From contig NZ_CP033972.1 in assembly GCF_003855095.1 (NCBI RefSeq), forward strand, positions 3,038,001 to 3,102,000: a stretch of DNA of 64,000 nucleotides. The letters run 5' to 3'. A model generated the notes under the pieces. It ran no database searches. It saw nothing but the letters and a program-made list of their open reading frames with translations, and was not told the DNA's origin. The number at the start of each line of letters is the position of its first letter. The first letter of the stretch is position 1. Both the position numbers and the translations under genes were made by a program. The DNA comes from Gordonia insulae (lineage in GTDB: Bacteria; Actinomycetota; Actinomycetes; Mycobacteriales; Mycobacteriaceae). This document shows, piece after piece, positions 22,794-47,360 of the stretch.

Positions 22794-23483
22794 CTAGTAG
22801 TGCCGCCGCGCTGTGTCCACATGGATCGCGCACGCAATCGATGTGGGCAGTTCTGCTGTGGAGCGCGAGGTTGCGAGTAACACCGACCTCCGTTTGGGTG
22901 TGACGGTGACCTCCATACCGGGTTCGATCCCTTCCGCCAGAAGCCCAGCCAGGGCGTCGCGGTCGTTCTGCATGTGCTCGGTGAACCGACGGATCACCCC
23001 CGACGTCGGAATCCCGAGGGGCAGTTCCGGCACGGGGGTGCTGAAATTCTTTGGTGCAGTGTTGAATCCGATCTGTTCCAGCCCCGGAATAGGGTTGCCC
23101 CAGGGATCTGTTGCCGGATATCCGAGAAGCGGGACCAGGTGGCGTTCGACGTCGTCGTCCATCACATGCTCCCAGCGGGTCGCGATCTGATGCACGTCGG
23201 CGCGGCGCATTCCGATGATGTCCACCAGCATCCGCTCGGCCAGCCGGTGCTTACGCGTCAGCGCGACTGCGGTTCGGTGTCCGGCGTCGGTGAGGACGAT
23301 GCGCTGGTCGTCAGTCATCTGCACGAGTCCCCCCAACCGCATGCGTTCGATCTTCTGTGAGACAGCGGATTTGCTGTGACCGAGTCGGGCGCTGATTCGT
23401 GCACGTCGAGGTGTCACATGGTCTTCGTCGAGATCGAAGATCGTTCGCAGATACCGTTCGGTCGCCGAACTCATCTCGATCAT
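22794..23483 (-). CDS. DtxR/IdeR-family metalloregulator with altered metal site
   Basis: The 229-residue protein has the DtxR layout: HTH (about residues 25-50), dimerisation and metal domain, and an SH3-like C-terminal domain. With the ATG at 23483 the numbering matches DtxR. The ancillary-site residues His79, Glu83 and His98 are kept. In the primary site Glu105 and His106 are kept, but Met10 is Arg and Cys102 is Thr. Specificity for Fe(II) is therefore uncertain. An ATG three codons later is also possible. The MATE gene lies upstream on the same strand, about 170 bases away, and a GCTTAG-N6-CTGAGT site lies in that gap. Confidence 0.85.
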   Translation of the reverse strand: MIEMSSATERYLRTIFDLDEDHVTPRRARISARLGHSKSAVSQKIERMRLGGLVQMTDDQRIVLTDAGHRTAVALTRKHRLAERMLVDIIGMRRADVHQIATRWEHVMDDDVERHLVPLLGYPATDPWGNPIPGLEQIGFNTAPKNFSTPVPELPLGIPTSGVIRRFTEHMQNDRDALAGLLAEGIEPGMEVTVTPKRRSVLLATSRSTAELPTSIACAIHVDTARRHY

Positions 23484-23630
23484 GCGGCCACTCGACCCGG
23501 TCGCGGGGTGCGGCCTCGGCCCGCACGACACAATGCCCGTGCATCACCGGTGGATGGTGGCCACGCAGGCCTTACTGTCCGCAGATAGTGACCGATTGGT
23601 TTCATGTCGCCACAATCCTGTCGGAGAGTA

Positions 23631-23648
23631 GCTTAGGAGACCCTGAGT
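23631..23648. promoter_or_regulatory. GCTTAG-N6-CTGAGT site 1 (upstream of DtxR-family gene)
   Basis: GCTTAGGAGACCCTGAGT is one of five exact matches to GCTTAG-N6-CTGAGT in the window. It lies just after the MATE stop and 148 bases before the DtxR-family start. It can be read as 11-bp-spaced direct repeats or as the degenerate palindrome CTYAG-N6-CTRAG. Confidence 0.65.
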
Positions 23649-23652
23649 AGGA

Positions 23653-25056
23653 CTAGCGCGGCCCGTTACGGTCGGGCGATAGTTCTGAGGTGCGCGGAAC
23701 CGAACGGACGAACCGCATGAGCATCAAGGCCGCGGTGACACCAAGACCGCAGGTGAGGCCCCACCACACTCCGGCGGCGTCGAGTCCCACAGGAAATGCC
23801 AGAACGAGCGCAGTGGGTAGACCGACCAGCCAGTACCCCACCACGGACAACCGGAATGCCGACACGGTGTCCCCGAGCCCACGCAGCAGACCAACGCCGA
23901 CGTTCTGGGCGGCGTCCACGAACTGCATGACGATCCCGATGAGCAACAACGAACGGCATAGCGCGATGGTGTCGCTGCTCGCATCGACGGTGAACGGTGC
24001 CAGGACTACGTCGGGGATGAACAGGTAGCACAACCCAGAGGCGGCCGCCAGGACCGACGTGGCAGCGAGGGCAAGCCTCATGACCGTCAGCGCCTGGTGG
24101 GTACGCATGCGGGCCACCTGTCGACTGACCAGGATCGACGCACCCTGCGACAATCCGATCGCGACCTGGAAGACGATGAAGGTTATCTGATACACGATGT
24201 TGTGGGCGGCAAGCGCTTCGGCCGAGATCGCTCCCATCACGAGGGCGAGAACCGAGAACATGCCTGCTTCGCTGGCATAGGTCGCCGACACGGGCACACC
24301 GAGCCCGAGCAGAGAGATCACGTCACGCCGCTCCGCGCGCCAGAACCGTACCGACATGAGTGGCGACAGTGTCTGATTGCGGCGGACGAGGATCCAGAAC
24401 ACGATGAACGTCAAGGCATGCACGAGAGATGTGCTCAGACCGATGCCGGCGAGCCCCAGCGACGGAAACGGCCCCCATCCGTGGATGAATCCCAGATTGA
24501 GTGCCGCGTTGACAGCGACCGAAGCGACGGTGATCCACAGTAATGCCAACGGTTTTCGCATTCCGACCGTGAACTGTCGGATGACCTGGAACCACAGACA
24601 GGGGATGAGCCCGGGTGCGAGCGCGACCAGCATCGATCTGGCGGCGGTGACGACATCGTCGGATTGGCCGAGGAAGGGAAGAAGCCAGCCGATACCGATG
24701 ATGGCCAGGGCACCGATGATCCCCGCGATCGTCGCGAGGAGAAACCCGGCGCGTACATGGCCGCGGATCGCCCGGGCCGCGTCTCCTGGATCGGCGGCGG
24801 TATCTGCTGCAGCGATCTGGTTTCCCATCGGCACAAGCAGTCCCACACCCATCGTGCGGAGTTGGTTGAAGATGACGACTGCCAGGCCGCCTCCGGCCAA
24901 CGCCTCAACGCCGAGAAGGCCCATCATCGCGGTGTCGGTGGCCGACAACGCTATCTGGGCCAGCTGGGTGCCGGCGACAGGTACGGCGAGCGCGGTCAGT
25001 TGCCGGGCCAGATGCGCTCCTGGAAGGTCACGCTTCTGCACTGTCCTGATGCTCAT
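23653..25056 (-). CDS. MATE-family multidrug/metabolite exporter
   Basis: The 467-residue membrane protein has about twelve hydrophobic segments in two homologous halves and MATE-like sequence near the N-terminus (ALAVPVAGTQLAQIALSATD). MATE proteins export cationic or amino-acid-derived molecules using Na+ or H+. The ATG overlaps the upstream SbnA-like stop (ATGA), making this the last gene of the tightly coupled biosynthetic operon. It is the best candidate for exporting the operon's product. Confidence 0.88.
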   Translation of the reverse strand: MSIRTVQKRDLPGAHLARQLTALAVPVAGTQLAQIALSATDTAMMGLLGVEALAGGGLAVVIFNQLRTMGVGLLVPMGNQIAAADTAADPGDAARAIRGHVRAGFLLATIAGIIGALAIIGIGWLLPFLGQSDDVVTAARSMLVALAPGLIPCLWFQVIRQFTVGMRKPLALLWITVASVAVNAALNLGFIHGWGPFPSLGLAGIGLSTSLVHALTFIVFWILVRRNQTLSPLMSVRFWRAERRDVISLLGLGVPVSATYASEAGMFSVLALVMGAISAEALAAHNIVYQITFIVFQVAIGLSQGASILVSRQVARMRTHQALTVMRLALAATSVLAAASGLCYLFIPDVVLAPFTVDASSDTIALCRSLLLIGIVMQFVDAAQNVGVGLLRGLGDTVSAFRLSVVGYWLVGLPTALVLAFPVGLDAAGVWWGLTCGLGVTAALMLMRFVRSVPRTSELSPDRNGPR

Positions 25057-26186
25057 TTCTGGGTGGGGATGGGGTCGCCCTGCCGCCACACCGTACTGGT
25101 TGGGGTCTCGTCATGGGTGGCGGTGCCGTTGATGACGTCGTCGAGGAGTTCGTCGACGCGGTTCTCCGTGGCGGGGCTGAGCAGGCCTCGGGCACTCATC
25201 CACTCGTCTGAGAAGACCGTGTCCAGGTACTTCTCTCCCCCGTCGCACACGATCGTGACCGCGGTGGTTCCCGAGGGGAGGTCGGGAAGGCGCTCGAGCG
25301 CAGCGTAGATGGCGCCGCCGGCAGAGCCTCCCAACAACAGGCCCCATCGGCGGGCGATCACCCGGACGGTGGCGAACGCTTCGATGTCACCGATCTTGAC
25401 ACCCTCGTCGAGCAGACTGTAGTCGACTGCCGTTCCGACGACCGCCCCCTCGGGAGTGCCGGTGCCGGACTGCCAGTAGTCGTATCCCGGACCGCCGAAG
25501 GCGATGGACCCGTGCGGTTCCACGCCGATGACGATGGCCGGATTTCCCAGAGCTCTGAGCTGGGCCGCGGTGCCGAAAAGACTGCCTCCGGTGCCGACAG
25601 CGCTGATGAGGTAGTCCACGCCGTTCGGCAGATCCTCGAGGAGTTCTTCTGCGACGCGGTGGTAACCGACGGCATTGGCGTCATTGTTGTGTTGCTCGGT
25701 GAAGTGGGCGTCGGGCAGTTTGGCGGCAAGCGCTTCGGCGTAGTCTTCGCGAGCCGACGTGGCCAGGGCATCGTCTCCATCAGAGGAGACGTAGGTGAGT
25801 TCGGCACCCATGGCCTTCATGGCGCGCAGCTTGTCGATGCACGCATGGTTGTCGACGACCGCGGAGAAGTGGTAGCCGCGTTCGGCGGCCACGACCGACA
25901 GTCCGAGTCCTGTGTTGCCTGAGGTGGATTCGACGATACGGCCGCCGGGGTGCAGATTGCCCCGCCGTTCGGCGTCGTCGATCATGGAGATGGCCATTCG
26001 GATCTTGGCTGCGCCGGTGGGATTGAATTGTTCGAGCTTGAGGAGCAGTCGTCCCCCTCCGGGGGCGCGGCAGAGTTCGAACAGCGGTGTGTTGCCGACG
26101 AGATCGGTCACTGCCTGCACGACGCGTTCTCGACCAACGCGTGGGCGACCGGCGGCGTCGGTGTGTGTGAGGGTGCTGGTGGTCAT
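25053..26186 (-). CDS. SbnA/cysteine-synthase-like PLP enzyme
   Basis: The 377-residue fold-type II PLP enzyme has the Schiff-base Lys in NPTGAAKIR, the phosphate loop STSGNTG and the GTGGS loop. The pairing with an SbnB-like gene suggests the SbnA group, which joins O-phosphoserine with glutamate towards L-2,3-diaminopropionate. An ordinary cysteine synthase or cystathionine synthase is the alternative. It has a C-terminal extension of about 50 residues compared with SbnA. Start and stop overlap both neighbours by four bases. The long upstream open frame is shadow coding within the decarboxylase gene. Confidence 0.8.
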   Translation of the reverse strand: MTTSTLTHTDAAGRPRVGRERVVQAVTDLVGNTPLFELCRAPGGGRLLLKLEQFNPTGAAKIRMAISMIDDAERRGNLHPGGRIVESTSGNTGLGLSVVAAERGYHFSAVVDNHACIDKLRAMKAMGAELTYVSSDGDDALATSAREDYAEALAAKLPDAHFTEQHNNDANAVGYHRVAEELLEDLPNGVDYLISAVGTGGSLFGTAAQLRALGNPAIVIGVEPHGSIAFGGPGYDYWQSGTGTPEGAVVGTAVDYSLLDEGVKIGDIEAFATVRVIARRWGLLLGGSAGGAIYAALERLPDLPSGTTAVTIVCDGGEKYLDTVFSDEWMSARGLLSPATENRVDELLDDVINGTATHDETPTSTVWRQGDPIPTQK

Positions 26187-27547
26187 CGATCGATGCTCCA
26201 TGTGGTCGGTGATGCTTGTCGGTGCAGAACCAGTTTCGGCGGTACCGGCACCTGATGGAACTCGGATTCGTTGGAATCCATCTGATAGCCCGCCGTGTTG
26301 GGATAGACGATGAGGTCGCCTACCCTTGCCCTGCGGGAGAACGGTATTCGTCGCCGACTCAACAGATCTGTGTCCAGGCAGGTCGCACCGGCGACGATCG
26401 CGGGATGACGCACGATCGGGGTGTCGGAGCGCGGTTGCGAACCGAGCGGGTCGACGAGCTCGGGATCGGGGAGGAATTCGCTGTCGAACCACTGCTCGGA
26501 CAGGCTCATCGAGGTCCCGGACACCGTGATGATGTCGGTGCCGTCGGTGTGGGTGTGTACCCCTCGCACGGTGAAGACGCTGATGCCGGCGCCGTCACAC
26601 AGCGCCCGGCCGGGTTCGATCATGATCGACAGCCCGCTGGAGCGGGCCCGGACGCCGACCGACTCCGGATGAGTCGTGTCGGAGTCGCACAGGATACGTT
26701 CGAGCATGGCCGCCCCGGCGACCTCGGTGGAGTAGGGGTACAGCGAGCCGGCAGTCTTTCCGTCGAAGTACCACTCGCCGGATTCTCTGGCGCGGTATGT
26801 GTCCCAGTCACGATGCTCGACATAGTCGACGGCGATGCCTCCGCCGATCGAGACGATGTCAGCGGGATGGCCGACCTCACGAGCCCGCTGGCATGCGTCG
26901 ATCGCACGATGAGCCATCGCCACTCTCGGCCACACGTCATAACCGGAGAGATGAAAACTGAATCCTCTCAGGACGATCCGATCTGACTCTTGCAAGTCAG
27001 CGACGGCCTGCTGGAGGCCCCACCCACTCATGCCGAACCGCGTCGTGGGGTCGTCGGGGCGCATCCGGAGCAGAATGTTGAGGTGCTCGGTCGGAGTGTG
27101 CTCGAGTACCCGGGAGACTTGTTCGACCGTGTCCAGAGCCACCAGGGCTCGGTGTCGCGCAGCGAGCCGTAGCACGTCGTCGGAGTGGGCGGGGCCGGTG
27201 ACCATCACCTCCTCGCCGCGTACCCCGGCGGCGAGTGCGGCACCGAACTCCTCGGCGGAGGCGACGTCGACGCCGTAGCGCGACGGCGGCGCAATGGCGG
27301 CGGCGTCTGCGCACGCACGAACGAACGCTCGCGCCTTGTTCGCCTTGTAGCCGTATCGAATCCGCCCAGTGACCCCGCATTCGTCGAACACGGCGGCGAA
27401 GTCGGCCAGATTGGCGGCGAACGTGTTCGGATCGATGATGTGATAGCTCTCCCCCACTGCCGAGGCCATCTGGCTGAGCAGGTCTGGCCGGGTGAGAATG
27501 GCTTTCTCCCAGGCACGGCGCTTGGCCGGCATGGGCGGGGCGCTCAT
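26183..27547 (-). CDS. Type III PLP amino-acid decarboxylase (LysA/SbnH-like)
   Basis: The 454-residue protein has the alanine-racemase-like barrel of group IV decarboxylases. The PLP Lys lies in YGYKANK, the phosphate-binding GGG in VSIGGGIAVDY and the EPGRALCDGAG motif downstream. DAP decarboxylase is the housekeeping member, while SbnH decarboxylates a citryl-diaminopropionate intermediate of staphyloferrin B. In this operon, with SbnA- and SbnB-like partners, an SbnH-like or specialised role is more likely than lysine synthesis. Its start overlaps the SbnB-like stop and its stop overlaps the SbnA-like start. Confidence 0.82.
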   Translation of the reverse strand: MSAPPMPAKRRAWEKAILTRPDLLSQMASAVGESYHIIDPNTFAANLADFAAVFDECGVTGRIRYGYKANKARAFVRACADAAAIAPPSRYGVDVASAEEFGAALAAGVRGEEVMVTGPAHSDDVLRLAARHRALVALDTVEQVSRVLEHTPTEHLNILLRMRPDDPTTRFGMSGWGLQQAVADLQESDRIVLRGFSFHLSGYDVWPRVAMAHRAIDACQRAREVGHPADIVSIGGGIAVDYVEHRDWDTYRARESGEWYFDGKTAGSLYPYSTEVAGAAMLERILCDSDTTHPESVGVRARSSGLSIMIEPGRALCDGAGISVFTVRGVHTHTDGTDIITVSGTSMSLSEQWFDSEFLPDPELVDPLGSQPRSDTPIVRHPAIVAGATCLDTDLLSRRRIPFSRRARVGDLIVYPNTAGYQMDSNESEFHQVPVPPKLVLHRQASPTTWSIDR

Positions 27548-28503
27548 GACCACAGTGCCACCACCTTTCCCAGGCCGAGTTCGCGGGCTCGGTCGACCAC
27601 GGCTTGACCGATGGCGATGTCGGTGACGACCAAGCCTGAGTTGTAAGCGAAGATGCGTTGGTTGCCTTCGGTGCGCGCAGGGTCGTCCCCCGCGAGAATG
27701 GCGGGGAGTTGCGCGTCGACCGGCGGCAACGACGTGCGCCCGTCCAGCAGATCCGTTCCGGTCACGGCCATCTGCTCGGCGTTGGTGGCGACCACCCGGT
27801 CGGCGGCCCAGAGACACGACGCGTCCACGCCGTATCCCACGAGGATCGTCACCGCCCAGGGTGCAACGCGATCACCGGTGACGTTGTGGGGCGTGCCCGG
27901 TCCGGCTGCTCCGACGATGACGTCGGCTCTGTGGGCCACCTCGTTGGCGTCGGTCACGGACTCTACGTCGACGTCGTGGACGTCCAAGCGCTGCTTGGTC
28001 GCGCGCAGACCCTCGGGATGGCTGCCGGCCAGCAGGACCGTGGTGACTGTCGGAAGGGCAGTCAGGATGGGACCGATGGTCTCTTGCCCTTGTCGTCCGC
28101 TGCCGATCACCAGGAGGGTGCGCGGGTTCGGTGGCGCGGTGGCCTTGGCGAGCAGAGCTGTGACTGCGGCAGTTCGGACTGCACCGATACGGGCACCGTC
28201 GAGCAGTGCGGTGGGCACTCCCGTCTGATCGTCGTACAGTTGCAGAGTCGTGTAGTAGCGCTTGGTGCCACGTCCCGGGTCCGGATCATGGGTGTACGAG
28301 GTCTTGAAGCCGACGGTCGTCGGGGATCGGCCCACCATCGCAAAGGAGATCGACTCGGAGGCTGACATTTTGACCTTGCGAGGGTTCTGTGATTGCTGAC
28401 GCGCAATACCGCAGTACGCCTCCTCGACGGCCGTGAGAACCAGCTGGGGGTCGAGCTCGATCCGGTCGATGTCGCTGCGGCTCAATGTCAACAGCTCGCT
28501 CAT
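27544..28503 (-). CDS. Ornithine cyclodeaminase/mu-crystallin-family dehydrogenase (SbnB-like)
   Basis: The 319-residue protein has the OCD/mu-crystallin layout: a substrate domain with FKTSYTHD and the Rossmann motif VIGSGRQGQETIGPI. SbnB uses NAD to release L-2,3-diaminopropionate from the SbnA product. OCD, alanine dehydrogenase and pyrroline reductase are alternatives. Immediate linkage to an SbnA-like gene is the main reason for the SbnB reading. It overlaps the 2OG-oxygenase stop and the decarboxylase start by 4 bases each. Confidence 0.78.
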   Translation of the reverse strand: MSELLTLSRSDIDRIELDPQLVLTAVEEAYCGIARQQSQNPRKVKMSASESISFAMVGRSPTTVGFKTSYTHDPDPGRGTKRYYTTLQLYDDQTGVPTALLDGARIGAVRTAAVTALLAKATAPPNPRTLLVIGSGRQGQETIGPILTALPTVTTVLLAGSHPEGLRATKQRLDVHDVDVESVTDANEVAHRADVIVGAAGPGTPHNVTGDRVAPWAVTILVGYGVDASCLWAADRVVATNAEQMAVTGTDLLDGRTSLPPVDAQLPAILAGDDPARTEGNQRIFAYNSGLVVTDIAIGQAVVDRARELGLGKVVALWS

Positions 28504-29498
28504 ACGAGGACCTCACTGTAGGGGCGGACGACCACCTGCCCGAATCCCGGCTCGAAGGATTCTGCGGCGGGTCGGTCGCGATCTGCCAGTCGGATGTTCA
28601 GTCGCAACAGCCACCGGTCGGTTCCGTCGAAACGCGCGGTGAACGGAACCCGGCCGTGCACAGCGACATCGTTGTCCAGTATCAGCACTTGACCAGGTTC
28701 CAACGCGACGAGCTGTGATACCGAGGCCAGGCCCGCCTCGAGTTTGGCGTAGGCCCTCGCCCACGTCGGACGTCCGGTCGAATCGGGCGTGTAAGCAGGG
28801 TCGTATCGCAGGCAGGCACCGTCGTCGCGCTGCCACAATGTACCCACGGGTGCCGGCGCCTGAGACTCGTCGCCACCCACATACGAGTCGTCGGGCAGGA
28901 TCGGGCATTCGGGTTGCCGGAGATGGGCGATCTCGTCGGGTGAGAGGTAGCCGCCGGCGAGGACGTCTCTGACCGATGCCAGTGTGGTGCCGATTGATTC
29001 ATGATTCCGCATGCAGCCCAACATGATCAAGTGCGCCCTGTCCGGGTGGAATGCGTCTTCGGTGTGTGGACTCAGCAGCACCGATGAGCTGGCGCCGGTC
29101 TGCTCGTTCTCGTGACCCGGGGTGGGGACGATCGAGTTGACCAGACGTCCGTCCTGTTGCCCCGCCCACCCGAACGGCTCGCCCAGCGCGAGCCCGATCA
29201 AGGTCATCGCGAATCCCAAAGCGGGACAGGTGTCAGCCGTCTGCCAGCTCGACGGCGTGGAGTCGATCAGCATATCGTCGATCGGTAGCCGATCCAGCAC
29301 AACAGCGGCTCCTCGGGGAGCCACACATTGGTTCAGGATCGCTGCAGGAATCTCGGCAAGAAGGTCACGTGCGGTTGTCGCGAACTCGGGTGCGTCAGGA
29401 TTGCGGTATTCCTCGGCCAGTTCGGACGCAAGTCGCATCAGACTGGTGGCGTCGGAAGGATCGATGCTGTGCATTTCTATGGTTTGTGCCGAAGTCAT
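28500..29498 (-). CDS. Fe(II)/2-oxoglutarate oxygenase of the clavaminate-synthase/amino-acid hydroxylase type
   Basis: The 332-residue protein has the metal triad His145-x-Glu147 in HTEDAFHPD and His281 in DNDVAVHGR, and a candidate 2-oxoglutarate Arg (Arg295 or Arg299). The HTEDAFHP segment is typical of the CAS-like group that hydroxylates or desaturates free amino acids such as Arg, Asn and Lys (VioC and AsnO relatives). It is the first gene of the operon, with GGAG before the ATG and an IdeR-like box 87 bases upstream. It probably tailors the amino-acid precursor of the product. Confidence 0.82.
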   Translation of the reverse strand: MTSAQTIEMHSIDPSDATSLMRLASELAEEYRNPDAPEFATTARDLLAEIPAAILNQCVAPRGAAVVLDRLPIDDMLIDSTPSSWQTADTCPALGFAMTLIGLALGEPFGWAGQQDGRLVNSIVPTPGHENEQTGASSSVLLSPHTEDAFHPDRAHLIMLGCMRNHESIGTTLASVRDVLAGGYLSPDEIAHLRQPECPILPDDSYVGGDESQAPAPVGTLWQRDDGACLRYDPAYTPDSTGRPTWARAYAKLEAGLASVSQLVALEPGQVLILDNDVAVHGRVPFTARFDGTDRWLLRLNIRLADRDRPAAESFEPGFGQVVVRPYSEVLV

Positions 29499-29584
29499 TT
29501 CAGCTCCATCGCTGGTGTCGGAAATCGATCATGACGATCTAGCTCAATGGCGCGTCAGCCTTTCCAAGCTCTATCAAAAGGAAC

Positions 29585-29603
29585 TTTGGTTAGGCTATCT
29601 AAA
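29585..29603 (-). promoter_or_regulatory. IdeR/DtxR-type iron box upstream of the 2OG-oxygenase operon
   Basis: TTTGGTTAGGCTATCTAAA matches TTAGGTTAGGCTAACCTAA at 15 of 19 positions, including the central GGTTAGGCTA. It lies 87 bases upstream of the operon's first ATG. This supports repression by iron-loaded IdeR and thus a role of the operon in iron limitation. Confidence 0.7.
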
Positions 29604-29950
29604 GTGCATCTCGTCACGAATTGGCCCGTTCCCTTGACCAGATCGACAGTTGGCGGCGCACGGCGAGCATCTCGCTGCTCGAAAGTGAAGCGCACTTAAC
29701 TGTTTCGCCGTCCAGATCCACGTGCTCGCAGAGCGATTCACGAGGCGTGGCGCCGCAAGCGACATGTCGAGCCTTACGCAGTGATGACCGGCGCACCTCG
29801 CAGGTAGACGGCGTACCGGCGATCGTCTGCCTGCAACGCATCACGCCCGTGTCGGCCGATCGACTCACGCCGATCGCTTGGTGGCCAGAGCCGCCCGGCC
29901 CGAGGCGCCCTTGCCCGGGTCCGCATCGGCGTGATTAGGTGCCGCACGAC

Positions 29951-29972
29951 GGGGGTTAGGGTATCCATACCC
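29951..29972 (+). promoter_or_regulatory. Half iron box and 14-bp palindrome upstream of ABC importer
   Basis: GGGGGTTAGGGTATCCATA matches the iron-box consensus at only 12 of 19 positions. It overlaps a perfect GGGTAT-CC-ATACCC inverted repeat. It is 40 bases before the binding-protein start and could be an operator for that operon, but the IdeR reading is weak. Confidence 0.35.
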
Positions 29973-30012
29973 GGAGCCCACAGGTGTTGCCTTATCGAGA
30001 AAGCACATATTC

Positions 30013-31536
30013 GTGAGCATCAGTCGCCGACATTTCCTGGCGGGCAGCGCGGGCGTTTCCGCTCTGGCCGTACTTGCCGCATGCGGCTCGAACAACGACT
30101 CCTCTTCGGGTGCCCCTCAATCGGGTGGAACCCTCCGGGTTGGCGCACTGGGGAAGACCTCGGCAATCGAGCAGGATCCGCATCAAACGCTGAACAACAA
30201 CAGCGACTTCCTCATTTCCTCATTGGTCTTCGACGCGTTGACCGTTCCCGGCGAGAATCCGAACACCGCGCCTCGGCTGGCCTCCCGGTGGGAGCAGCTC
30301 GGCGATCCTCGACAGTGGCGATTCGTCATCGCCGAAGGCGCCGCGTTCCACGACGGCACTCCGGTCTCCTCTGCCGACGTGGTGTGGTCACTCCGACGGC
30401 TCCATGAGATTGCCGGTGAGACAAAGGTTCCCGTAACCTCGCCGGGCGACATCGTGACTGACGGCCCATCGGCTGTCCGGATCACCACGCCGGCACCCAA
30501 CCGCGACCTGCCCATGCTGTTGCGTCTGATGACGTTCACCGTCAAACAGGGCACCACCGATTTCGCCAGGCCGGTCGGCACAGGACCGTTCACGCTGGAG
30601 TCCTTCGACAACGGAAATGCTCGCCTGGTGCGAAACCCGAACTGGTACGCCACGCCGCCGACCCTGGACGCCATCGAGGTCACCCGCTTCGAGAGCACCA
30701 CCGCGATGGCCAACGCGGTACTGAGCAACCAGATCGACCTCGCCTCCAACGTCGGCGCCGTCGCCGGACGCACTGCCGAGGGCCGAGACGGATACACGGT
30801 CATGCGCCGCTCCAACGATGTGGTGATCCCCGTCGTCATGCGCACCTCCGACGGCCCTTTTGCCGACGTTCGGGTACGTGAGGCGATGCGGCTCATCGTC
30901 GATCGCGATGCCATGGTGAAACAGGCGATCTCCGGTTATGGAGTCGTCGCCAACGACGTACTGGGAACCGGTGATCCGACATACGACAGGTCACTGCCCC
31001 AACGCGGGCGGGATCTCGACAAGGCCAAAGCACTTCTGGCCGAGGCGCGTTTCGATCTCACCAAGACCTATCAACTGTTCACCAAGGATGAAGCGGTCGG
31101 CGAGGTCGATTCGGCCAAGCTGTTCGCCGGCCAGGCACGGGATGCGGGCATCAAGATCGACGTCGTCACGCAGGACTCCAACGTGTTCTACGACGAGACG
31201 TGGCTGTCCGCGCCGCTGTACACCGCGAACTGGGGAACCAACGACTCCGTGGTCTTCTTCGCCAGCAAGACGATGTATTCCGGGACCAAGTGGAACGAGA
31301 CCGGTTTCCACGACGCTGCCTTCGATTCCGCCTATCGCCGAGCACTGGCGGCGCGCGACGACGCGACATATCAGAATGCCAGTCACGACCTGCAGCGCAT
31401 CGAGTACGAGCGGGGCGGCTACCTCGTCTGGGGTATGGCCGACGGGGTCGATATCGCTTCGTCTCGGGTTCACGGACTGCCCACCCTGGGTGGGTTCGGT
31501 CGAGTACAGCTCGAACGAGCATGGTTGACCAATTGA
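30013..31536 (+). CDS. ABC-importer substrate-binding lipoprotein (Opp/Dpp/NikA class)
   Basis: The 507-residue protein starts with GTG. It has a twin-arginine-like RRHFLAG signal and a lipobox (LAAC at about residue 23), so it is likely an exported lipoprotein. The mature part is a family-5 solute-binding protein (SBP_bac_5) with the TSPGDI and GTGPFTL-type segments. Such proteins bind peptides, nickel complexes or metallophores such as staphylopine. It is the first gene of a complete four-gene importer and is divergent from the metallophore-like operon. The ligand is inferred, not seen. Confidence 0.85.
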   Translation: MSISRRHFLAGSAGVSALAVLAACGSNNDSSSGAPQSGGTLRVGALGKTSAIEQDPHQTLNNNSDFLISSLVFDALTVPGENPNTAPRLASRWEQLGDPRQWRFVIAEGAAFHDGTPVSSADVVWSLRRLHEIAGETKVPVTSPGDIVTDGPSAVRITTPAPNRDLPMLLRLMTFTVKQGTTDFARPVGTGPFTLESFDNGNARLVRNPNWYATPPTLDAIEVTRFESTTAMANAVLSNQIDLASNVGAVAGRTAEGRDGYTVMRRSNDVVIPVVMRTSDGPFADVRVREAMRLIVDRDAMVKQAISGYGVVANDVLGTGDPTYDRSLPQRGRDLDKAKALLAEARFDLTKTYQLFTKDEAVGEVDSAKLFAGQARDAGIKIDVVTQDSNVFYDETWLSAPLYTANWGTNDSVVFFASKTMYSGTKWNETGFHDAAFDSAYRRALAARDDATYQNASHDLQRIEYERGGYLVWGMADGVDIASSRVHGLPTLGGFGRVQLERAWLTN

Positions 31537-32525
31537 CCTCCGAGTCGCTGCGGTTCGCGGGTTCCCGGTGGACGCCGTCGGTCGCGGCTGCCTCCTCGCG
31601 CCGCGTTGCCACCGCGCTGACTCAGCGGATCGCGGTGTTGATCGTCGTGCTGATCGTGGTGTTCGCGACTGTCGATCTGCTACCGGGCAACGGTGTAAGG
31701 GCCGTACTGGGGCGCGACGCCACCGACGCCCAGATCGCCGCGCGCGAGGCGGCCCTCGGGCTCGACCGACCCCTGCCCGTCAGGTTCGCAGACTGGCTCG
31801 GGGGACTGATCCGGGGCGATCTGGGCACCAGCGTCCGGGGAACATCCGTCAACGACATGCTCACCGACAAGTTCCCCAACACCCTGATCCTCGGCGGCGC
31901 CGCGATACTGGTCACGGCCATCGCGGCGGTCTGTTTCGGAGCGCTGTGGTCGTTCTTCCCACGCAGCGTTGCTGCCCGTGCACTGTCGTCGACGACCATT
32001 GCGGTCATCGCGATCCCCGAATTCGTGATCGCCGTCGGCCTGGTCTTCGTGTTCGCCCTGCTGCTCGGCTGGTTGCCCGCCGTGACCACGACCGGCCCGT
32101 CAGGCGCGCCGGCCAACGCCGCGGTGCTGGTGCTTCCGGTACTTGCACTGGCGATCCCCCAGTCCGGCTGGAACATTCGGGTCACCCGGGCCGCGCTGGA
32201 CGAGGCCGCCGGCATGCCACACGTCGCCGCGGCCGAACTGGATGGACTCACGCGACGTGAGATCCTGGCGCGTCATATCCTGCCCATCGCCGCACCCACT
32301 CTGGCCGCCTCGCTGGCGACGACGGTGGGCATGGTCCTCGGAGGCGCGCTTGTGGTCGAGACGATCTTCAATTACCCGGGGCTGGGAACGGTGCTTGCCG
32401 GCGCGGTCACAGATCGCGATGCGCCCGTTGTCGCAGCTGTCGTGGCCTTGACCGGTGTCGTCATCACCATGATGCTGGTCCTCGCAGATCTTCTGCGCGC
32501 GTGGGCGATACGAACTCGCGCATGA
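31521..32525 (+). CDS. ABC transporter permease, DppB type
   Basis: The 334-residue protein has an N-terminal transmembrane helix, a periplasmic stretch with GLDRPLPVRFADWLGG and LGTSVRG typical of DppB-type permeases, and five more helices. The EAA loop is AAELDGLTRREILARHILP. The start overlaps the binding-protein stop by 16 bases. The first 25 codons, rich in Ser and Arg, are less certain. Confidence 0.85.
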   Translation: MVDQLTSESLRFAGSRWTPSVAAASSRRVATALTQRIAVLIVVLIVVFATVDLLPGNGVRAVLGRDATDAQIAAREAALGLDRPLPVRFADWLGGLIRGDLGTSVRGTSVNDMLTDKFPNTLILGGAAILVTAIAAVCFGALWSFFPRSVAARALSSTTIAVIAIPEFVIAVGLVFVFALLLGWLPAVTTTGPSGAPANAAVLVLPVLALAIPQSGWNIRVTRAALDEAAGMPHVAAAELDGLTRREILARHILPIAAPTLAASLATTVGMVLGGALVVETIFNYPGLGTVLAGAVTDRDAPVVAAVVALTGVVITMMLVLADLLRAWAIRTRA

Positions 32526-33310
32526 AACACACGCGGGTCTGGTGGCTGGTGCCGGCGGCGGTGATCATCGCCGCTGCCGCCATCGCCCCGTTGTTCGTCG
32601 ACACGTCGTCCGGTCAGGGAGACATCCCCTACTCGGAGCCATCGGCGCAGGCCTGGCTCGGCACGGACCACCTCGGGCGTTCGATACTGCCTCAGCTGCT
32701 GACCGGCGGATGGAGGATCATCCTGATCGCGTCGACGATCGCCGTATTGGTCACTGCTCTGGCCGCGATGGCGGGTACCGTCGCTGCGCTCCAACCGCGC
32801 CTGGGTGCAGTCATCGAGCGCGCCACCGACGCCGCGATGCTTGTTCCGCCCATTCTGGCGATCATGCTGGTGTTGCTGTCCTGGCCGTCTGCCGGAACCG
32901 CCGGGCTGATCGTCGTCGCCGTACTGGTCGGCACGCCCTACTCAGCACGGGTATTCGCTGCCGCCGCGAACGGGGTCGCCGCATCCGGCTTCATCGACGT
33001 CGCCGTCGCCAGTGGTGAGCGACTGCCGTACCTCGCGGTCAGAGAGGTCCTGCCGAACCTGCGTGACACCACGCTCACTCAGCTCGGACTGCGGTTCGTC
33101 GAGGCCATGTACCTGGTCAGCACCGCAGCATTTCTCGCCCTCCCGGCATCCCTGGGCGAATCCAACTGGGCGCTGATGGTCCGCGAGAACAGCGGTGGTG
33201 TGTTACTCAACCCGTGGGCAGTGGCAGCGCCGGCTCTCGCGTTGGCGCTGGTGGCGATCAGTCTCTCGGTGGCCGTCGAGATCATCGCTTCCCGAAGGAC
33301 GACACCGTGA
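32522..33310 (+). CDS. ABC transporter permease, DppC type
   Basis: The 262-residue protein has the DppC features: HLGRS in the LGTDHLGRSILPQLLTGG segment, several membrane helices, and the EAA-like loop around DVAVASGERLPYLAVREVLP. The ATG overlaps the DppB-type stop (ATGA); an earlier ATG would make a longer overlap without need. Confidence 0.85.
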   Translation: MKHTRVWWLVPAAVIIAAAAIAPLFVDTSSGQGDIPYSEPSAQAWLGTDHLGRSILPQLLTGGWRIILIASTIAVLVTALAAMAGTVAALQPRLGAVIERATDAAMLVPPILAIMLVLLSWPSAGTAGLIVVAVLVGTPYSARVFAAAANGVAASGFIDVAVASGERLPYLAVREVLPNLRDTTLTQLGLRFVEAMYLVSTAAFLALPASLGESNWALMVRENSGGVLLNPWAVAAPALALALVAISLSVAVEIIASRRTTP

Positions 33311-34794
33311 CCGCGGCCGTCTCGGTGACGTCATTCAGTGTCAGCGTTGCCCCCCAGCCGGACGATCCGATCCTCGCCCCGGTGTCGTTCACGGCTGAGC
33401 ACGGCACCGTCATCGCGTTGTCGGGCCCGTCCGGGTGCGGCAAGACCACACTGATGAAAGCGATTCTCGGGGCGGTGCCCGCCGGTGGACATCACAGGGG
33501 CGACATCACCGTCCACGGTGAACAGGTACTGGCTCTGCCAGAGAAGCGGCTGCGCTCCTTCCGCCGTAGGCATCTGGCCTATGTCGGCCAAGACCCCGGT
33601 TCAGCACTCAACCCGGTCGTCACCGTGCGGACGCTGATCTCCGAACTGGCCACTCCCACCGCGGCGTTGAGCCCGGCAGCGGCGCTCGAAGCCGTGGGCC
33701 TGCCGGCCGAGATCTCGTCGCGGCGTCCCGGACAACTCTCCGGCGGGCAGCAACGCCGAGTGGCGTTGGCGCGTGCGCTCACACGCGGCGTACAGCTGCT
33801 GCTCATCGACGAACCCTTCGCCGGACTACATCAACAAGCCCGGGCAGACATCTCCCGACTACTGACCGCGTTGGCCACCGAGCACAACATCACCGTGATC
33901 GTTTCCGGACATGACATGGCCACGCTCGAATCGATGACAGACCAGCACATACACCTCCACCCTGCGGCAGCGCGTCGCGTCACCGCGCCCCCCATGCCGA
34001 TCCCGATCCCGATGCCGATGCCGGCACGATCGGCCACCTCGCCAGTGCTGGCCGCCCGGACACTGTGCCTCCGCCGTGGGCAGATCAACGTTCTCGACGG
34101 CGTCGACCTGACTGTGTCCGAAGGCGCGCTGACCGCGGTGCTCGGTCAATCCGGGGCGGGCAAGACCACCCTGGCTCGCGTACTGGTCGGACTCGAGCCC
34201 ACGGCGACCGGCACGCTGACTCTCGACATGGAACCGCTCTCGTGCGATGTACGCGGGCGGACTCCCGCCCAGCGCGGCCGCATTCAACTCATCCCGCAGA
34301 ACCCGTTGTCGTCACTCAATCCGCAACGCACCGTGGGCCAGACACTCGCCAGGGCTCTGCATCGCCTCAACGGTCGCCGGCACCGTTCGCGCGATCACCC
34401 CACCGACGTCACCACACTGCTGGAGGCCGTCGAACTACCGCCGGATTTCGGTCACCGCTACCCACACGAGTTGTCCGGCGGACAACGCCAACGCGTTGCC
34501 ATCGCTCGCGCACTGGCGGCCGGTCCGCGGGTGCTCGTCTGTGACGAGATCACCTCGGCGCTCGACATTGCCACAGCGCACGCCATCATGCGCTTGGTCT
34601 CCGACGTCGCCACCGCACGCGATATGGCGGTGATCGTGATCAGCCACGACATGGACCTGCTGAAGCGATACACCGCGCACGGGGTCGTTCTCGATGCCGG
34701 CCAGATCGTTGCCCGAGGAAACATCCGCGAACTCGTCGACACCGTCGGCACCCCGGCAGGACCGTCGGAGTCGATCGGCCACAGCCACACATGA
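33307..34794 (+). CDS. Fused double ABC ATPase (DppD-DppF type)
   Basis: The 495-residue protein has two complete nucleotide-binding domains. The first has Walker A GPSGCGKT, signature LSGGQQRR and Walker B LLLIDEP. The second has Walker A GQSGAGKT, signature LSGGQRQR and Walker B VLVCDEI. The linker carries a short PMPIPIPMPMPMP repeat coded by tandem hexamers (about 33992-34021), a site prone to length change. The GTG start overlaps the permease stop (GTGA). It powers import by the preceding permeases. Confidence 0.88.
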   Translation: MTAAVSVTSFSVSVAPQPDDPILAPVSFTAEHGTVIALSGPSGCGKTTLMKAILGAVPAGGHHRGDITVHGEQVLALPEKRLRSFRRRHLAYVGQDPGSALNPVVTVRTLISELATPTAALSPAAALEAVGLPAEISSRRPGQLSGGQQRRVALARALTRGVQLLLIDEPFAGLHQQARADISRLLTALATEHNITVIVSGHDMATLESMTDQHIHLHPAAARRVTAPPMPIPIPMPMPARSATSPVLAARTLCLRRGQINVLDGVDLTVSEGALTAVLGQSGAGKTTLARVLVGLEPTATGTLTLDMEPLSCDVRGRTPAQRGRIQLIPQNPLSSLNPQRTVGQTLARALHRLNGRRHRSRDHPTDVTTLLEAVELPPDFGHRYPHELSGGQRQRVAIARALAAGPRVLVCDEITSALDIATAHAIMRLVSDVATARDMAVIVISHDMDLLKRYTAHGVVLDAGQIVARGNIRELVDTVGTPAGPSESIGHSHT

Positions 34795-40182: not shown

Positions 40183-40200
40183 GCTTAGCGGACGCTGAGT
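40183..40200. promoter_or_regulatory. GCTTAG-N6-CTGAGT site 3 (PAP2/histidine-kinase divergent promoter)
   Basis: GCTTAGCGGACGCTGAGT lies between the PAP2 start and the decayed kinase start. It differs at only one base from the copy upstream of the intact kinase, consistent with duplication of kinase plus promoter. Confidence 0.7.
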
Positions 40201-40259
40201 TGTGCTGTGATCACGCTGATATTGGTACTACCGTCCGATGCGTGCATCCAAGGCAGACA

Positions 40260-41812: not shown

Positions 41813-43021
41813 TCAGCCGAGAACGATTCCGGGAACTTGGGCCAAGGTCGCCGACAATGCGTCGATCTTGTTCGACAGATCCTTGCGTTGCTCGGCGTTG
41901 ACCGTCGTGTATGCCACGTAGCCGTCACCCTGGCGGTACTGGTTGATCGCCGTCCGCACATCGGTGAACTGCCCGGTGATCTTGTCCATCAACGCAGGAT
42001 CCTTGGCGGAGATGATCGGCTGCATCTCCGCGATCAGCGTCTCTGCGCCGTCGACATTGGCTGCGAAGTCCCACAGGTCGGTGTGTGAATAGCGATCCTC
42101 CTCTCCTCCGACCTTGGTCGCCGCGATCTCGTCGATCAACGCCTGTGGGCCTTGCACGAACTGGCGGGTCTCAAAAGTGAAATCTTGCTTGTTCACTTCA
42201 TCTTTGAGCGTGTTGACGTTGTTCAGTAGCTCGTCGGCCGCCTGGGTGATGTTGGCGTCGCTGTCGGCGGAGGTGGCGTTCGCGGCGTCGGCGGGCGCGA
42301 TCTGGCCCGGACCGTCCCCGACCTCTTGAGGCTGGGGCGGCCACAGGTAGCGTTCGAGTCGATGGAACCCGGTGAAGGGTTGGGCGCCGTCTTCGGTGTC
42401 GTCCCAACGCATGTCGATCGCGGGATCGAGGTCCGGGAAGGACTCGGCCACGGGCTCGATGCGTTCGTAGAACGTGCGCACCTGCCCGAACATGGCTTGT
42501 GCCTGGTCACGCTGCCCCGCCTTGATGTGATCCACGAACACCGTGGTCTGTGCGGCCAACCCGTTCACCTGCCCACGTACATAGTCGAGATAGCGTTGCT
42601 TGGCAGCGTTGACATCAGCGGGAACGGCCTGCTTGTCCTTCGTGTCACCGGAGACGGTGATCTGCTGCCTGATTCCCGTCCCGACCATGCCGGGTTTGCA
42701 TGCGACGGTGTAGGTGCCGGGGTCCGTGACCTCGACGGTGAGGTTGCCGGAGAGGCCGGGACCGATGTTCTCCACCTCGCCGAGGACCCGATTATTGTTG
42801 CCGTACAGGTAGAATTCGGTGACTTTCGGACCATTGTTGGTGACCGTGAAGTTCACGTCGCCTGTTTGTGCGTCGGTGCTGGCCAGATCGCAGGCATCAT
42901 TGGTGGAGGTGACGTCGATGGTGCCGTTGGCGCCGTCTTTGGAGGTACAGCCCGCAAGCAGTGCAGGTGCGGCTACCGTCATCGTCAGTAGCGCGACCGG
43001 CGTGGTGATTCTTCTGTTCAC
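41813..43021 (-). CDS. efeO: Iron uptake lipoprotein EfeO
   Basis: The 402-residue protein has a lipobox signal (LLAGC near residue 24), an N-terminal cupredoxin-like domain (about 30-135) and a C-terminal M75/imelysin-like domain with the HxxE-type motif in GFHRLERYLW. EfeO captures iron outside the membrane and hands it to EfeU. The GTG start follows GAAAGGAAAA, 12 bases after efeU. The usual third gene, the peroxidase efeB, does not follow. A terminator-like hairpin comes next. Confidence 0.9.
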   Translation of the reverse strand: MNRRITTPVALLTMTVAAPALLAGCTSKDGANGTIDVTSTNDACDLASTDAQTGDVNFTVTNNGPKVTEFYLYGNNNRVLGEVENIGPGLSGNLTVEVTDPGTYTVACKPGMVGTGIRQQITVSGDTKDKQAVPADVNAAKQRYLDYVRGQVNGLAAQTTVFVDHIKAGQRDQAQAMFGQVRTFYERIEPVAESFPDLDPAIDMRWDDTEDGAQPFTGFHRLERYLWPPQPQEVGDGPGQIAPADAANATSADSDANITQAADELLNNVNTLKDEVNKQDFTFETRQFVQGPQALIDEIAATKVGGEEDRYSHTDLWDFAANVDGAETLIAEMQPIISAKDPALMDKITGQFTDVRTAINQYRQGDGYVAYTTVNAEQRKDLSNKIDALSATLAQVPGIVLG

Positions 43022-43033
43022 CTGGTTTTCCTT

Positions 43034-43927
43034 TCAGATACCGGCATCGGGAGCGGCCGGGGTTTGCGGGTGCGCATCGGCCGAGCGGGCTGGGCGGCGG
43101 CGATTGGCACGGAGGAACAGCGCCAGCACGATGACGATGTAGAGCGACCACGCGGCGACCTGCAGAAGAGTCGGATCTGGGCGGAAGTTGAATATTCCTG
43201 CCAGAAGTGTTCCATACCAAGATGATTGGTCATAGTATGCCGAGGTGTCGAATGCCAGGGTCGGTCCACCGGGTAACCACCCGACGGTCTGCAGGGCACG
43301 CACTCCGTAGGCGAGAATGCCAGCGGCGACGAAGATCAGGAAGATGCCCGTATACAGAAAGAACTTATGAAAGTTCAGGCGCACGGCACCTCGATACAGC
43401 AGGACCGTCAACAAGACGGCCACCAGGATACCGAGCAACAGCCCGAGCAGCGGCCATAGACTGCCGGACACACTCTCGGCGTACCCGACCATCAGCAGTG
43501 CGGTCTCGAATCCTTCACGCCCGACGGCGAGAAACGCCAGCCCCATCACCGCAGCGCCACCGCTGATCAACGCCGTCGACATCTCGTCTTTGAGATCAGC
43601 GGAAATGTGTGCGGAGGCCTTGCTCATCCACAGCACCATGAACGTCACGATCGCCACCGCCACCAGGGAGGCGAGGCCGGCGATCAGTTCTGCGGTCAAC
43701 GTCGACACCGTCGAGGTACCGAAATGGATGATCACGAAGATCGCGATGACCATGGCGACTGCTGCGCCAACGCCCGCCCACAGCCACTTGAGCGCGTCTC
43801 GACGGTCCGACTTCACGAGGAAGGCAACGAGAATCATGACCACGATCCCGGTTTCGAGCCCTTCGCGTATGCCGATGAGGCCGCTGCCGAACACTTGAGC
43901 AGCGACAGAGGGTCCGGCCGTATCCAT
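43034..43927 (-). CDS. efeU: Iron permease EfeU (FTR1 family)
   Basis: The 297-residue membrane protein has about seven helices and both REGxE motifs of the FTR1/EfeU family (IREGLET near residue 20 and GREGFET near 138), which form the iron path. It is the first gene of the efeUO pair, with GGAG before the ATG. It completes a ferrous or ferric uptake system with EfeO. About 400 bases upstream hold no gene. Confidence 0.92.
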   Translation of the reverse strand: MDTAGPSVAAQVFGSGLIGIREGLETGIVVMILVAFLVKSDRRDALKWLWAGVGAAVAMVIAIFVIIHFGTSTVSTLTAELIAGLASLVAVAIVTFMVLWMSKASAHISADLKDEMSTALISGGAAVMGLAFLAVGREGFETALLMVGYAESVSGSLWPLLGLLLGILVAVLLTVLLYRGAVRLNFHKFFLYTGIFLIFVAAGILAYGVRALQTVGWLPGGPTLAFDTSAYYDQSSWYGTLLAGIFNFRPDPTLLQVAAWSLYIVIVLALFLRANRRRPARSADAHPQTPAAPDAGI

Positions 43928-44329: not shown

Positions 44330-44347
44330 GCTTAGTGGACGCTGAGT
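44330..44347. promoter_or_regulatory. GCTTAG-N6-CTGAGT site 4 (upstream of intact histidine kinase)
   Basis: GCTTAGTGGACGCTGAGT lies 41 bases before the kinase GTG start. It is the same position and orientation as site 3 relative to the decayed kinase, which suggests autoregulation. Confidence 0.7.
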
Positions 44348-44387
44348 ACCGCTGTACGGTGCGGCAGAGCCGGGTTACTGTCATCGC

Positions 44388-45785: not shown

Positions 45786-45851
45786 GGCATCAGCCGAACG
45801 GTCCATCCCCCACCACAGTCGCACAAAGGTCACGAAAGGCATTGCGAGTCA

Positions 45852-46532
45852 GTGAATCGTCTCATCGATACCGCCTCCTGCTACGTCCGCACGATCTACA
45901 ACATCAGCGAAGACGGACAAGTCCCACGCCGAGCTCGCATCATGGAACGCCTGGGCCAGGCAGGACCCACTGTCTCCCAGACGGTCGCCCGACTCGAACG
46001 GGACGGACTGCTCACCGATGGCACGACAGAACAACATCTCGTGCTGACACCCGAAGGCCAACGCATCGCGATCGCCGCCACTCGCAAACACCGACTTGCC
46101 GAACGGATGCTCACCGACATCCTGGGACTTCCTGCCCAAAGAGTGCATGAGGAAGCGTCTCGATGGGAACACGTCATGAGCGATGACGCGGAACGCGGAA
46201 TCATCGAGCTCCTGGAGAATCCCACCGAGTCACCATGGGGAAACCCGATACCGGGCCTCGATCAACTCGGTGTCGAGTGGCGACCACGGCCTCCGGGCAT
46301 CCGACTACTCGACATCGGGCGACCCAAGGACCCGATCCAGGCGACCGTGCGATCGATCTCGGAAGACGCGCAAGACGATGAAGCCCTGATGAGCCAACTG
46401 ATCTCGGCCGGTGTCATCCCAGGTGCGCGGGTGCGTGTCGAGTACCGACCGGGCATCTACGTTGTGCGCGGCTTGAACAGCATCGAAGTCGCTGCAAAGC
46501 GCGCACACATCATCCAACTCGACCGCGGGTAA
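45852..46532 (+). CDS. DtxR/IdeR-family metalloregulator, second paralogue
   Basis: The 226-residue protein resembles IdeR along the HTH (SGPTVSQTV-like AGPTVSQTVARLERDGLL) and metal domain (EASRWEHVMS) and has a C-terminal SH3-like domain. The position of DtxR Met10 is Cys10, and that of Cys102 is Ser. Ancillary His80, Glu84 and His99 and primary Glu106 and His107 are kept. Metal preference may differ from IdeR. The GTG start has AAAGG upstream. It follows the kinase by 66 bases and probably shares its transcript. A bona fide IdeR could lie elsewhere. Confidence 0.87.
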   Translation: MNRLIDTASCYVRTIYNISEDGQVPRRARIMERLGQAGPTVSQTVARLERDGLLTDGTTEQHLVLTPEGQRIAIAATRKHRLAERMLTDILGLPAQRVHEEASRWEHVMSDDAERGIIELLENPTESPWGNPIPGLDQLGVEWRPRPPGIRLLDIGRPKDPIQATVRSISEDAQDDEALMSQLISAGVIPGARVRVEYRPGIYVVRGLNSIEVAAKRAHIIQLDRG

Positions 46533-46552
46533 CCGACTGTGCCGTCGCGAGG

Positions 46553-47342: not shown

Positions 47343-47360
47343 GCTTAGAACATGCTGAGT
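47343..47360. promoter_or_regulatory. GCTTAG-N6-CTGAGT site 5 (upstream of response regulator)
   Basis: GCTTAGAACATGCTGAGT keeps all 12 fixed bases with a different spacer. It lies 110 bases from the response-regulator ATG and downstream of the lipoprotein stop, so the regulator gene is its probable target. Confidence 0.65.

What the first reader, a model, noticed from the sequence alone, without database searches (positions are those of the whole stretch)
22794..34794. Iron-boxed SbnA/SbnB/SbnH-like operon with a 2OG oxygenase, MATE exporter and divergent Opp-type importer
Five genes with four-base overlaps throughout encode a CAS-like amino-acid oxygenase, OCD/SbnB-like, LysA/SbnH-like, SbnA-like and MATE proteins. 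An IdeR-like box with 15 of 19 matches lies upstream. A complete Opp/Dpp-type importer, the class that also imports opine metallophores, diverges from it. Staphyloferrin B uses SbnA, SbnB and SbnH, but no NIS synthetase is present here and an oxygenase is added. This suggests a small diaminopropionate- or hydroxy-amino-acid-derived metallophore or antimetabolite I cannot match to a known pathway.
Basis: partly seen in the sequence, partly recalled or inferred. Interest (0 to 1): 0.88.

Follow-up and report, generated by a model that had tools for sequence, protein, structure and literature searches.

The report
Gordonia copy of EDHA siderophore cluster
This looks like a soil actinomycete's set of genes for making, exporting and re-importing a small iron-scavenging molecule of the already described EDHA type, with an unusual extra iron-regulator-like gene attached.

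Summary
In detail: five genes joined by four 4-base ATGA overlaps, a 15/19 iron box at 29585-29603, and a divergent Opp-type importer. The claim that no known pathway fits does not hold. All nine genes (SBP-PermB-PermC-ATPase diverging from oxygenase-SbnB-SbnH-SbnA-MATE) occur in the same order and orientation in Streptomyces scabiei 87.22 at 589813-600682. That agrees with the published cluster for the siderophore ethylenediaminesuccinic acid hydroxyarginine (EDHA; scab_5231-5311, 11 kb). 66 of the 80 named loci kept by the search have all nine genes in that layout. All 92 importer-oxygenase gaps scored carry an IdeR-like box; eight core clusters without that gap score 13-16 of 19. The oxygenase resembles arginine hydroxylases. 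No NIS synthetase family was found in the genome. An antiSMASH 'aminopolycarboxylic-acid' cluster is in print for Gordonia polyisoprenivorans. Specific to the two Gordonia copies: a cluster-linked IdeR paralogue with an altered primary metal site, found in 2 of 59 genomes of the genus, the two with the cluster, and a local DNA box shared with efe and two-component promoters. Product and regulation are inferred, not measured.

The parts
28500..29498 (-). Fe(II)/2-oxoglutarate oxygenase, predicted L-arginine 3-hydroxylase
   Evidence: TauD family; nearest solved structures include arginine hydroxylases OrfP and VioC and CmnC; metal-ligand-type residues H145, E147, H281 invariant in 12 of 12 aligned relatives; 50.5% identity to the S. 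scabiei cluster oxygenase
27544..28503 (-). SbnB/OCD-like NAD(P)H dehydrogenase, predicted imine reductase
   Evidence: PF02423; TIGR03944 SbnB is the best NCBIfam hit at 90 bits, below its 327 cut-off; 45% identity to S. scabiei
26183..27547 (-). SbnH/LysA-like PLP decarboxylase
   Evidence: PF02784; K68, SFHLxG, GGG, EPGR and C390 invariant in 10 of 10 aligned; 46% identity to S. scabiei
25053..26186 (-). SbnA-like PLP synthase (beta-replacement)
   Evidence: PF00291; TIGR03945 SbnA is the best NCBIfam hit at 227 bits, below its 350 cut-off; 67% identity to S. scabiei
23653..25056 (-). MATE exporter
   Evidence: PF01554; 54% identity to S. scabiei
29585..29603 (+). IdeR/DmdR-like iron box, 15 of 19
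30013..31536 (+). solute-binding protein of the Opp/Nik family
   Evidence: SBP_bac_5 and TAT_signal; 55% identity to S. scabiei
31533..32525 (+). permease B (start uncertain)
   Evidence: BPD_transp_1; 57% identity to S. scabiei
32522..33310 (+). permease C (ATG at 32522 or GTG at 32501)
   Evidence: BPD_transp_1; 48% identity to S. scabiei
33307..34794 (+). two-domain ABC ATPase (start uncertain)
   Evidence: ABC_tran, two stretches; 48% identity to S. scabiei
22794..23474 (-). cluster-linked DtxR/IdeR paralogue with altered primary metal site
   Evidence: PF01325, PF02742; Arg at Met10 and Thr at Cys102 of IdeR; found in 2 of 59 genomes of the genus, both with the cluster
23631..23649 (+). 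local box GCTTAGGAGACCCTGAGTA between MATE and the IdeR paralogue

Best explanation
The locus is the Gordonia version of the EDHA-type aminopolycarboxylate siderophore cluster. Proposed working (chemistry inferred): the oxygenase converts L-arginine to 3-hydroxyarginine; the SbnA-like enzyme joins an activated serine (O-phosphoserine or O-acetylserine) to the alpha-amine of one amino acid; the SbnH-like enzyme decarboxylates the serine-derived end, giving an ethylenediamine unit; the SbnB-like enzyme reductively couples a 2-oxo acid to the free amine and so adds the second arm. The result is ethylenediamine bearing one succinate and one hydroxyarginine arm, made without any ligase. MATE exports it, and the divergent Opp-type importer takes the ferric complex back. 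Iron-loaded IdeR represses both transcripts from the shared box. Shown: gene content, order, homology, box. Inferred: each reaction, product, direction of transport, iron response. Which arm is added first is unknown.
For: S. scabiei 87.22 has all nine homologues in the same order and orientation within 10.9 kb; this fits the published EDHA cluster, scab_5231-5311 and 11 kb. 66 of the 80 named loci kept have the complete layout, spanning 10.2 to 11.8 kb, with SbnA identities of 60-68% to the window. The SbnA- and SbnB-like proteins are far from own-genome paralogues. The oxygenase's best solved-structure matches with a named substrate are arginine hydroxylases, and the Asp that lines up with an Asp of OrfP, CmnC and 6daw is invariant among the aligned relatives. 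An iron box of at least 14/19 is present in 92 of 92 scored importer-oxygenase gaps and of 13-16 before the oxygenase in 7 of 7 core clusters without an adjacent importer. EDHA is described in print as iron-responsive (passage of PMC10702961). An antiSMASH aminopolycarboxylic-acid cluster is reported in Gordonia polyisoprenivorans 135 (passage of PMC10112205).
Against: Identity to the S. scabiei proteins is only 45-67%, so the amino-acid arm could differ. The EDHA paper itself (Metallomics 2018) is not held, so tags and genes were matched by count, length and position, not by reading the tags. The SbnA and SbnB matches lie below the curated equivalog cut-offs. Two oxygenase-bearing clusters fetched later have weak boxes, L227 11/19 (and no importer hit) and L236 13/19; three of four Nocardia-type boxes at 13/19 were matched by 0, 0, 1 and 3 of 40 shuffles, so the box there is not certain.
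Confidence: 0.9

Rival explanations
1. Same scaffold chemistry but a different product: the oxygenase hydroxylates another amino acid (for example enduracididine, lysine or asparagine), giving an EDHA analogue.
For: The oxygenase is 50.5% identical to the S. scabiei one. The best NCBIfam score is an enduracididine hydroxylase model, far below its cut-off (218 against 345 bits). Asparagine, clavaminate and lysine enzymes are also among the 16 solved-structure matches.
Against: Those come below the arginine hydroxylases in score, and the whole nine-gene layout is shared with S. scabiei.
Confidence: 0.08
2. A zinc metallophore of the [S,S]-EDDS type.
For: Oxygenase-less four-gene clusters SbnB-SbnH-SbnA-MATE in the family of G294 share the core order, and 10 of 38 oxygenase-less upstream regions have a Zur-like box of 12 or 13 of 15 (two of the 38, L259 and L261, could not be judged).
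Against: The window has the oxygenase, an iron box (15/19) and no Zur-like box (best 9/15).
Confidence: 0.02
3. A staphyloferrin B-like or diaminopropionate pathway.
For: SbnA/SbnB/SbnH homologues.
Against: No NIS synthetase family in the genome, equivalog cut-offs not reached, and a complete match to another known cluster.
Confidence: 0.01

Closest known systems
EDHA biosynthetic gene cluster (Streptomyces scabiei scab_5231-5311; MIBiG BGC0002567)
   Same: All nine genes, order, divergent orientation, length of about 11 kb, iron-type box in the shared gap (15/19 in S. scabiei)
   Different: 45-67% protein identity; the Gordonia copies add a DtxR/IdeR paralogue behind MATE, and the same query hit none of the other cluster stretches fetched
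Aminopolycarboxylic-acid cluster of Gordonia polyisoprenivorans 135 (antiSMASH call in print)
   Same: Same genus. A G. polyisoprenivorans IdeR paralogue (P0126) prints the same letters as the one in the congener cluster L047, and its longest contig, 5988360 bases, is the chromosome length printed for strain 135. That strain's cluster itself was not fetched
   Different: Window proteins are 61-82% identical to those of L047 over the five core genes and 56-83% over the importer
[S,S]-EDDS cluster of Amycolatopsis japonicum
   Same: Shared SbnB-SbnH-SbnA-MATE core in oxygenase-less actinomycete clusters that are probably of this type (inference, no named A. japonicum locus was fetched)
   Different: No oxygenase, Zur-like boxes in part of them; EDDS control by Zur is in print (passage of PMC6103462)
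Staphyloferrin B (sbn) pathway
   Same: SbnA/SbnB/SbnH homologues
   Different: No NIS synthetases; an oxygenase instead; scores below the SbnA and SbnB equivalog cut-offs

Membership tests
EDHA-type cluster | Same gene content as the S. scabiei cluster | tested here: met
   9 of 9 homologues
EDHA-type cluster | Same order and divergent orientation | tested here: met
   Identical layout in S. scabiei and in 66 of 80 named loci
EDHA-type cluster | Arginine-hydroxylase-type oxygenase | tested here: met
   By homology only; activity not tested
EDHA-type cluster | Iron-responsive control | tested here: inconclusive
   Box present; response to iron not measurable here
EDHA-type cluster | Production of EDHA | not testable with these tools
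   Needs chemistry
EDDS-type cluster | Zur box | tested here: not met
   Best 9 of 15 in the window gap
EDDS-type cluster | No oxygenase | tested here: not met
   Oxygenase at 28500-29498
Staphyloferrin B pathway | NIS synthetases | tested here: not met
   0 matches to PF04183 in the genome
Staphyloferrin B pathway | SbnA and SbnB equivalog scores | tested here: not met
   227 of 350 bits and 90 of 327 bits
Cysteine synthase / ornithine cyclodeaminase | Grouping with own-genome PALP and OCD-family paralogues | tested here: not met
   Trees of 51 SbnA and 50 SbnB rows, with 3 of 5 own PALP paralogues and the one own OCD-family paralogue; best own PALP paralogue 38%, own OCD 27%

The most novel reading that the evidence does not exclude
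In Gordonia the EDHA cluster has acquired its own regulator: an IdeR paralogue whose primary metal site is rebuilt (Arg for Met10, Thr for Cys102), so that it no longer reads iron like IdeR. It would work under a local two-component box (GCTTAG-N5-SCTGAG) that also sits before the efe and sensor-kinase genes, joining siderophore traffic and Efe iron uptake in one local circuit.
Probability: 0.3. Interest if true: 0.5.

Novelty: new member of a known kind. Interest (0 to 1): 0.3.

Why it matters
It turns an apparently orphan operon into a named siderophore pathway. The nine-gene EDHA layout is seen here in Gordonia, Nocardia-like, Streptomyces, Kitasatospora and Streptosporangiaceae genomes. 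It also points to oxygenase-less sister clusters, part of them with zinc-type boxes, a natural comparison for how one scaffold is switched between metals. The Gordonia IdeR paralogue gives a testable case of an iron-repressor fold with a changed metal site tied to one cluster.

Tried and rejected
Considered and rejected: staphyloferrin B-like pathway (no NIS synthetase); cysteine synthase or ornithine/proline catabolism; zinc metallophore; antimetabolite (nothing found for it; iron-type boxes).

Idea that weakened: from one locus in a relative genus (L086) I supposed that the SbnA-like enzyme swaps together with the oxygenase and therefore accepts hydroxyarginine. In 40 more neighbourhoods the oxygenase-less clusters of the G294 family keep an SbnA that is 49-60% identical to the window's, and in the SbnA tree four rearranged oxygenase-less clusters fall inside the oxygenase-bearing group. 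L123 even has all of importer, oxygenase, SbnB and SbnH but an SbnA of only 30% and no MATE hit. The SbnH and MATE trees did not finish. So I do not assign the order of the two arms.

Led nowhere: a duplicate-removal script timed out, so duplicates were recognised from equal contig lengths. My first alignment of IdeR paralogues read one locus on the wrong strand and was repeated. A genome-wide scan for IdeR boxes with up to 3 mismatches found three places (six rows), none of them the cluster's own box, which has 4 mismatches. A search for Gordonia with EDHA and siderophore found no paper.
Full report
What is there. Five minus-strand genes (oxygenase 28500-29498, SbnB-like 27544-28503, SbnH-like 26183-27547, SbnA-like 25053-26186, MATE 23653-25056) start with ATG and are joined by four 4-base overlaps. 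Diverging from them over a 514-base gap is a four-gene Opp/Nik-type importer, 30013-34794. In the gap lies TTTGGTTAGGCTATCTAAA (29585-29603), 15 of 19 against the recalled IdeR consensus; 1 of 2000 Markov versions of the gap did as well. Behind MATE lies a DtxR/IdeR-family gene (22794-23474).

Conservation. In 397 genomes of the order, 61 had an oxygenase match at E<=1e-20, and about fifteen matches stood apart in score. Stretches around the 14 outside the window were fetched, and around the two hits of the genus search. Eleven held all five core genes: the congener L047, L031, and all nine of genus g3 (Nocardia-like by names: L033-L037, L039-L042). L032 is cut by its contig end. L038, L043, L044 and the congener stretch L048 carry an oxygenase relative without the core. 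The importer adjoined the core in L031, L033, L037, L041 and L047, and had no adjacent hit in the other six of the eleven. In 394 genomes of the class, decarboxylase matches at E<1e-165 included seven in one genus outside the order; all seven stretches held all nine genes in the same divergent layout.

Identity. A scan of named genomes found 257 relatives of the oxygenase and kept the best 80. 66 of 80 have all nine genes in the same order and orientation, over 10.2 to 11.8 kb. Of the other 14, ten are cut by a contig end on the side of the missing genes; L096 has no ATPase hit, L169 no importer, L172 the oxygenase alone, and L123 an SbnA of only 30% and no MATE hit. One of the 66 is Streptomyces scabiei 87.22, NC_013929.1, 589813-600682, 10.9 kb. 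A paper on S. scabiei states that its EDHA cluster runs from scab_5231 to scab_5311 and is 11 kb (passages of PMC8914351); tags rising by ten would give nine genes. I take the two to be the same locus; I did not see the tags on the DNA. Passages of another paper call EDHA iron-responsive and zwitterionic and list S. scabies, S. avermitilis, two corynebacteria and Nocardia brasiliensis (PMC10702961). A mining preprint counts the family in 24 genera (passages of PMC11888242).

Genus. The nearest named oxygenase is 'oxygenase [Gordonia polyisoprenivorans]', 76% over 94%. A genome announcement of G. polyisoprenivorans 135 lists an antiSMASH aminopolycarboxylic-acid cluster (passage of PMC10112205). 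So the kind of cluster has been called in this genus before. It is sporadic: 3 of 59 genomes of the genus, the window's included, have an oxygenase match at E<=1e-15; the window and G425 have the cluster, G432 (35%) does not.

The best own PALP paralogue is 38% identical to the SbnA-like protein and the one own OCD-family paralogue 27% to the SbnB-like one. Trees were made of 51 SbnA rows (one cluster row, L084, dropped by my filter; 3 of 5 own paralogues put in) and 50 SbnB rows. In the SbnA tree the window lies with oxygenase-bearing clusters including S. scabiei, but that group is not one clade, as four rearranged oxygenase-less clusters fall inside it. In the SbnB tree the oxygenase-bearing rows form one side of a branch with weak support (71/87). 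Own paralogues lie on very long branches outside. SbnH and MATE trees did not finish.

Iron control. Of 105 loci examined, 12 lacked an oxygenase or SBP hit and one (L043, genes 8 kb apart) was set aside. All 92 others had a best box of 14 to 18 of 19, and none of 40 shuffles per locus reached it. Nine genomes are in that set twice (equal contig lengths), leaving 83. Of the 12, seven have the core without an adjacent importer: before the oxygenase L040 and L042 score 15, L169 16, L034, L035, L036 and L039 13; shuffles as high were 0 of 40 except L035 (3) and L036 (1). Among oxygenase-bearing loci fetched later, L227 had only 11/19 and L236 13/19. For contrast, 10 of 38 oxygenase-less upstream regions (two of them not usable) had a Zur-like box of at least 12/15, and 3 of 38 an IdeR-like box of at least 15/19.

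Oxygenase. Of 16 solved-structure sequences matched, the best are CmnC, OrfP, a non-heme iron hydroxylase (6daw) and VioC-type arginine hydroxylases; asparagine, clavaminate and lysine enzymes follow. H145, E147 and H281 are invariant in 12 aligned relatives. D233 lines up with an Asp present in OrfP, CmnC and 6daw; its role in holding the guanidinium group is recalled. No VioC alignment was printed.

How it works. Hydroxylation of arginine, beta-replacement on an activated serine, decarboxylation to an ethylenediamine unit, and reductive coupling of a 2-oxo acid would give EDHA with the four enzymes present and no ligase. This is inferred from enzyme families and from the name of the product; the SbnA/SbnB chemistry is recalled, not read here.

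What is specific to Gordonia. The IdeR-family gene behind MATE is found at E<=1e-60 in 2 of 59 genomes of the genus, the two that carry the cluster; the same query made no hit in the other cluster stretches. Its close clade among the 120 proteins listed (P0121-P0127) has Arg in place of Met10 in all six members that cover it; Cys102 is Thr or Ala in six of seven, and the seventh, P0126, keeps Cys but has Gln at 105 and 106. The genome's canonical IdeR (L176) and the three further relatives aligned keep all four residues. Between MATE and this gene both Gordonia loci share a box. The degenerate form GCTTAGNRGACSCTGAGTW has three exact sites in the 5.96 Mb genome, all within 20.7 kb of the window (23631, 40183, 44330), none with 1 or 2 mismatches, and nine with 3, of which one (47343) precedes the response regulator. 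The pattern was built from these sites, and at up to 3 mismatches the backward control is no rarer (8 forward and 8 reverse, against 8 and 4), so the weight rests on the clustering and on the two exact core sites in L047, one before the IdeR paralogue and one before efeB. Starting from the 23631/L047 form alone, three window matches with up to 3 mismatches were found against 0.01 expected.

Verdict. A well-supported new Gordonia member of the EDHA cluster family, ordinary in its biosynthetic core, with a regulatory add-on that deserves a small experiment. I ran no literature search on that add-on, so I make no claim that it is unreported.

Noticed in passing
22794-23474: IdeR paralogue with Arg at Met10 and Thr at Cys102, found only in the two genomes of the genus that carry the cluster (2 of 59)
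   Followed up: partly
23631-23649, 40183-40201, 44330-44348, weak 47343-47361; L047:14699, 17674: Local box GCTTAGNRGACSCTGAGTW before the IdeR paralogue, before sensor-kinase-type genes, between efeU and a kinase, and before efeB in the congener; possibly a direct repeat bound by the nearby OmpR-type response regulator
   Followed up: partly
41813-43927 and 44388-47233: efeO and efeU iron-uptake genes, a sensor kinase, a second IdeR paralogue (45852-46532, Ser at Cys102) and a response regulator; in L047 a response regulator, a kinase-like frame and efeB follow the EDHA cluster directly
   Followed up: partly
L086, L254-L258: Oxygenase-less clusters in a relative genus in which the SbnA-like enzyme is replaced by a distant one (32-35% to the window; 68-76% to L086's)
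   Followed up: partly
L249-L253: Rearranged oxygenase-less SbnH-SbnB-SbnA clusters, three of the five with a Zur-like box of 12/15
   Followed up: no
L240, L241, L244, L247, L262, L265, L266: Four-gene SbnB-SbnH-SbnA-MATE clusters with a Zur-like box (12 or 13 of 15), probably EDDS-type
   Followed up: partly
L123: Streptomyces torulosus locus with importer, oxygenase and SbnB but an SbnA of only 30%, an SbnH of 36% and no MATE hit: a possible hybrid cluster
   Followed up: no
L038, L043, L044, L172: Relatives of the oxygenase without the cluster core; L038 nevertheless has a 16/19 IdeR-like box before it
   Followed up: no
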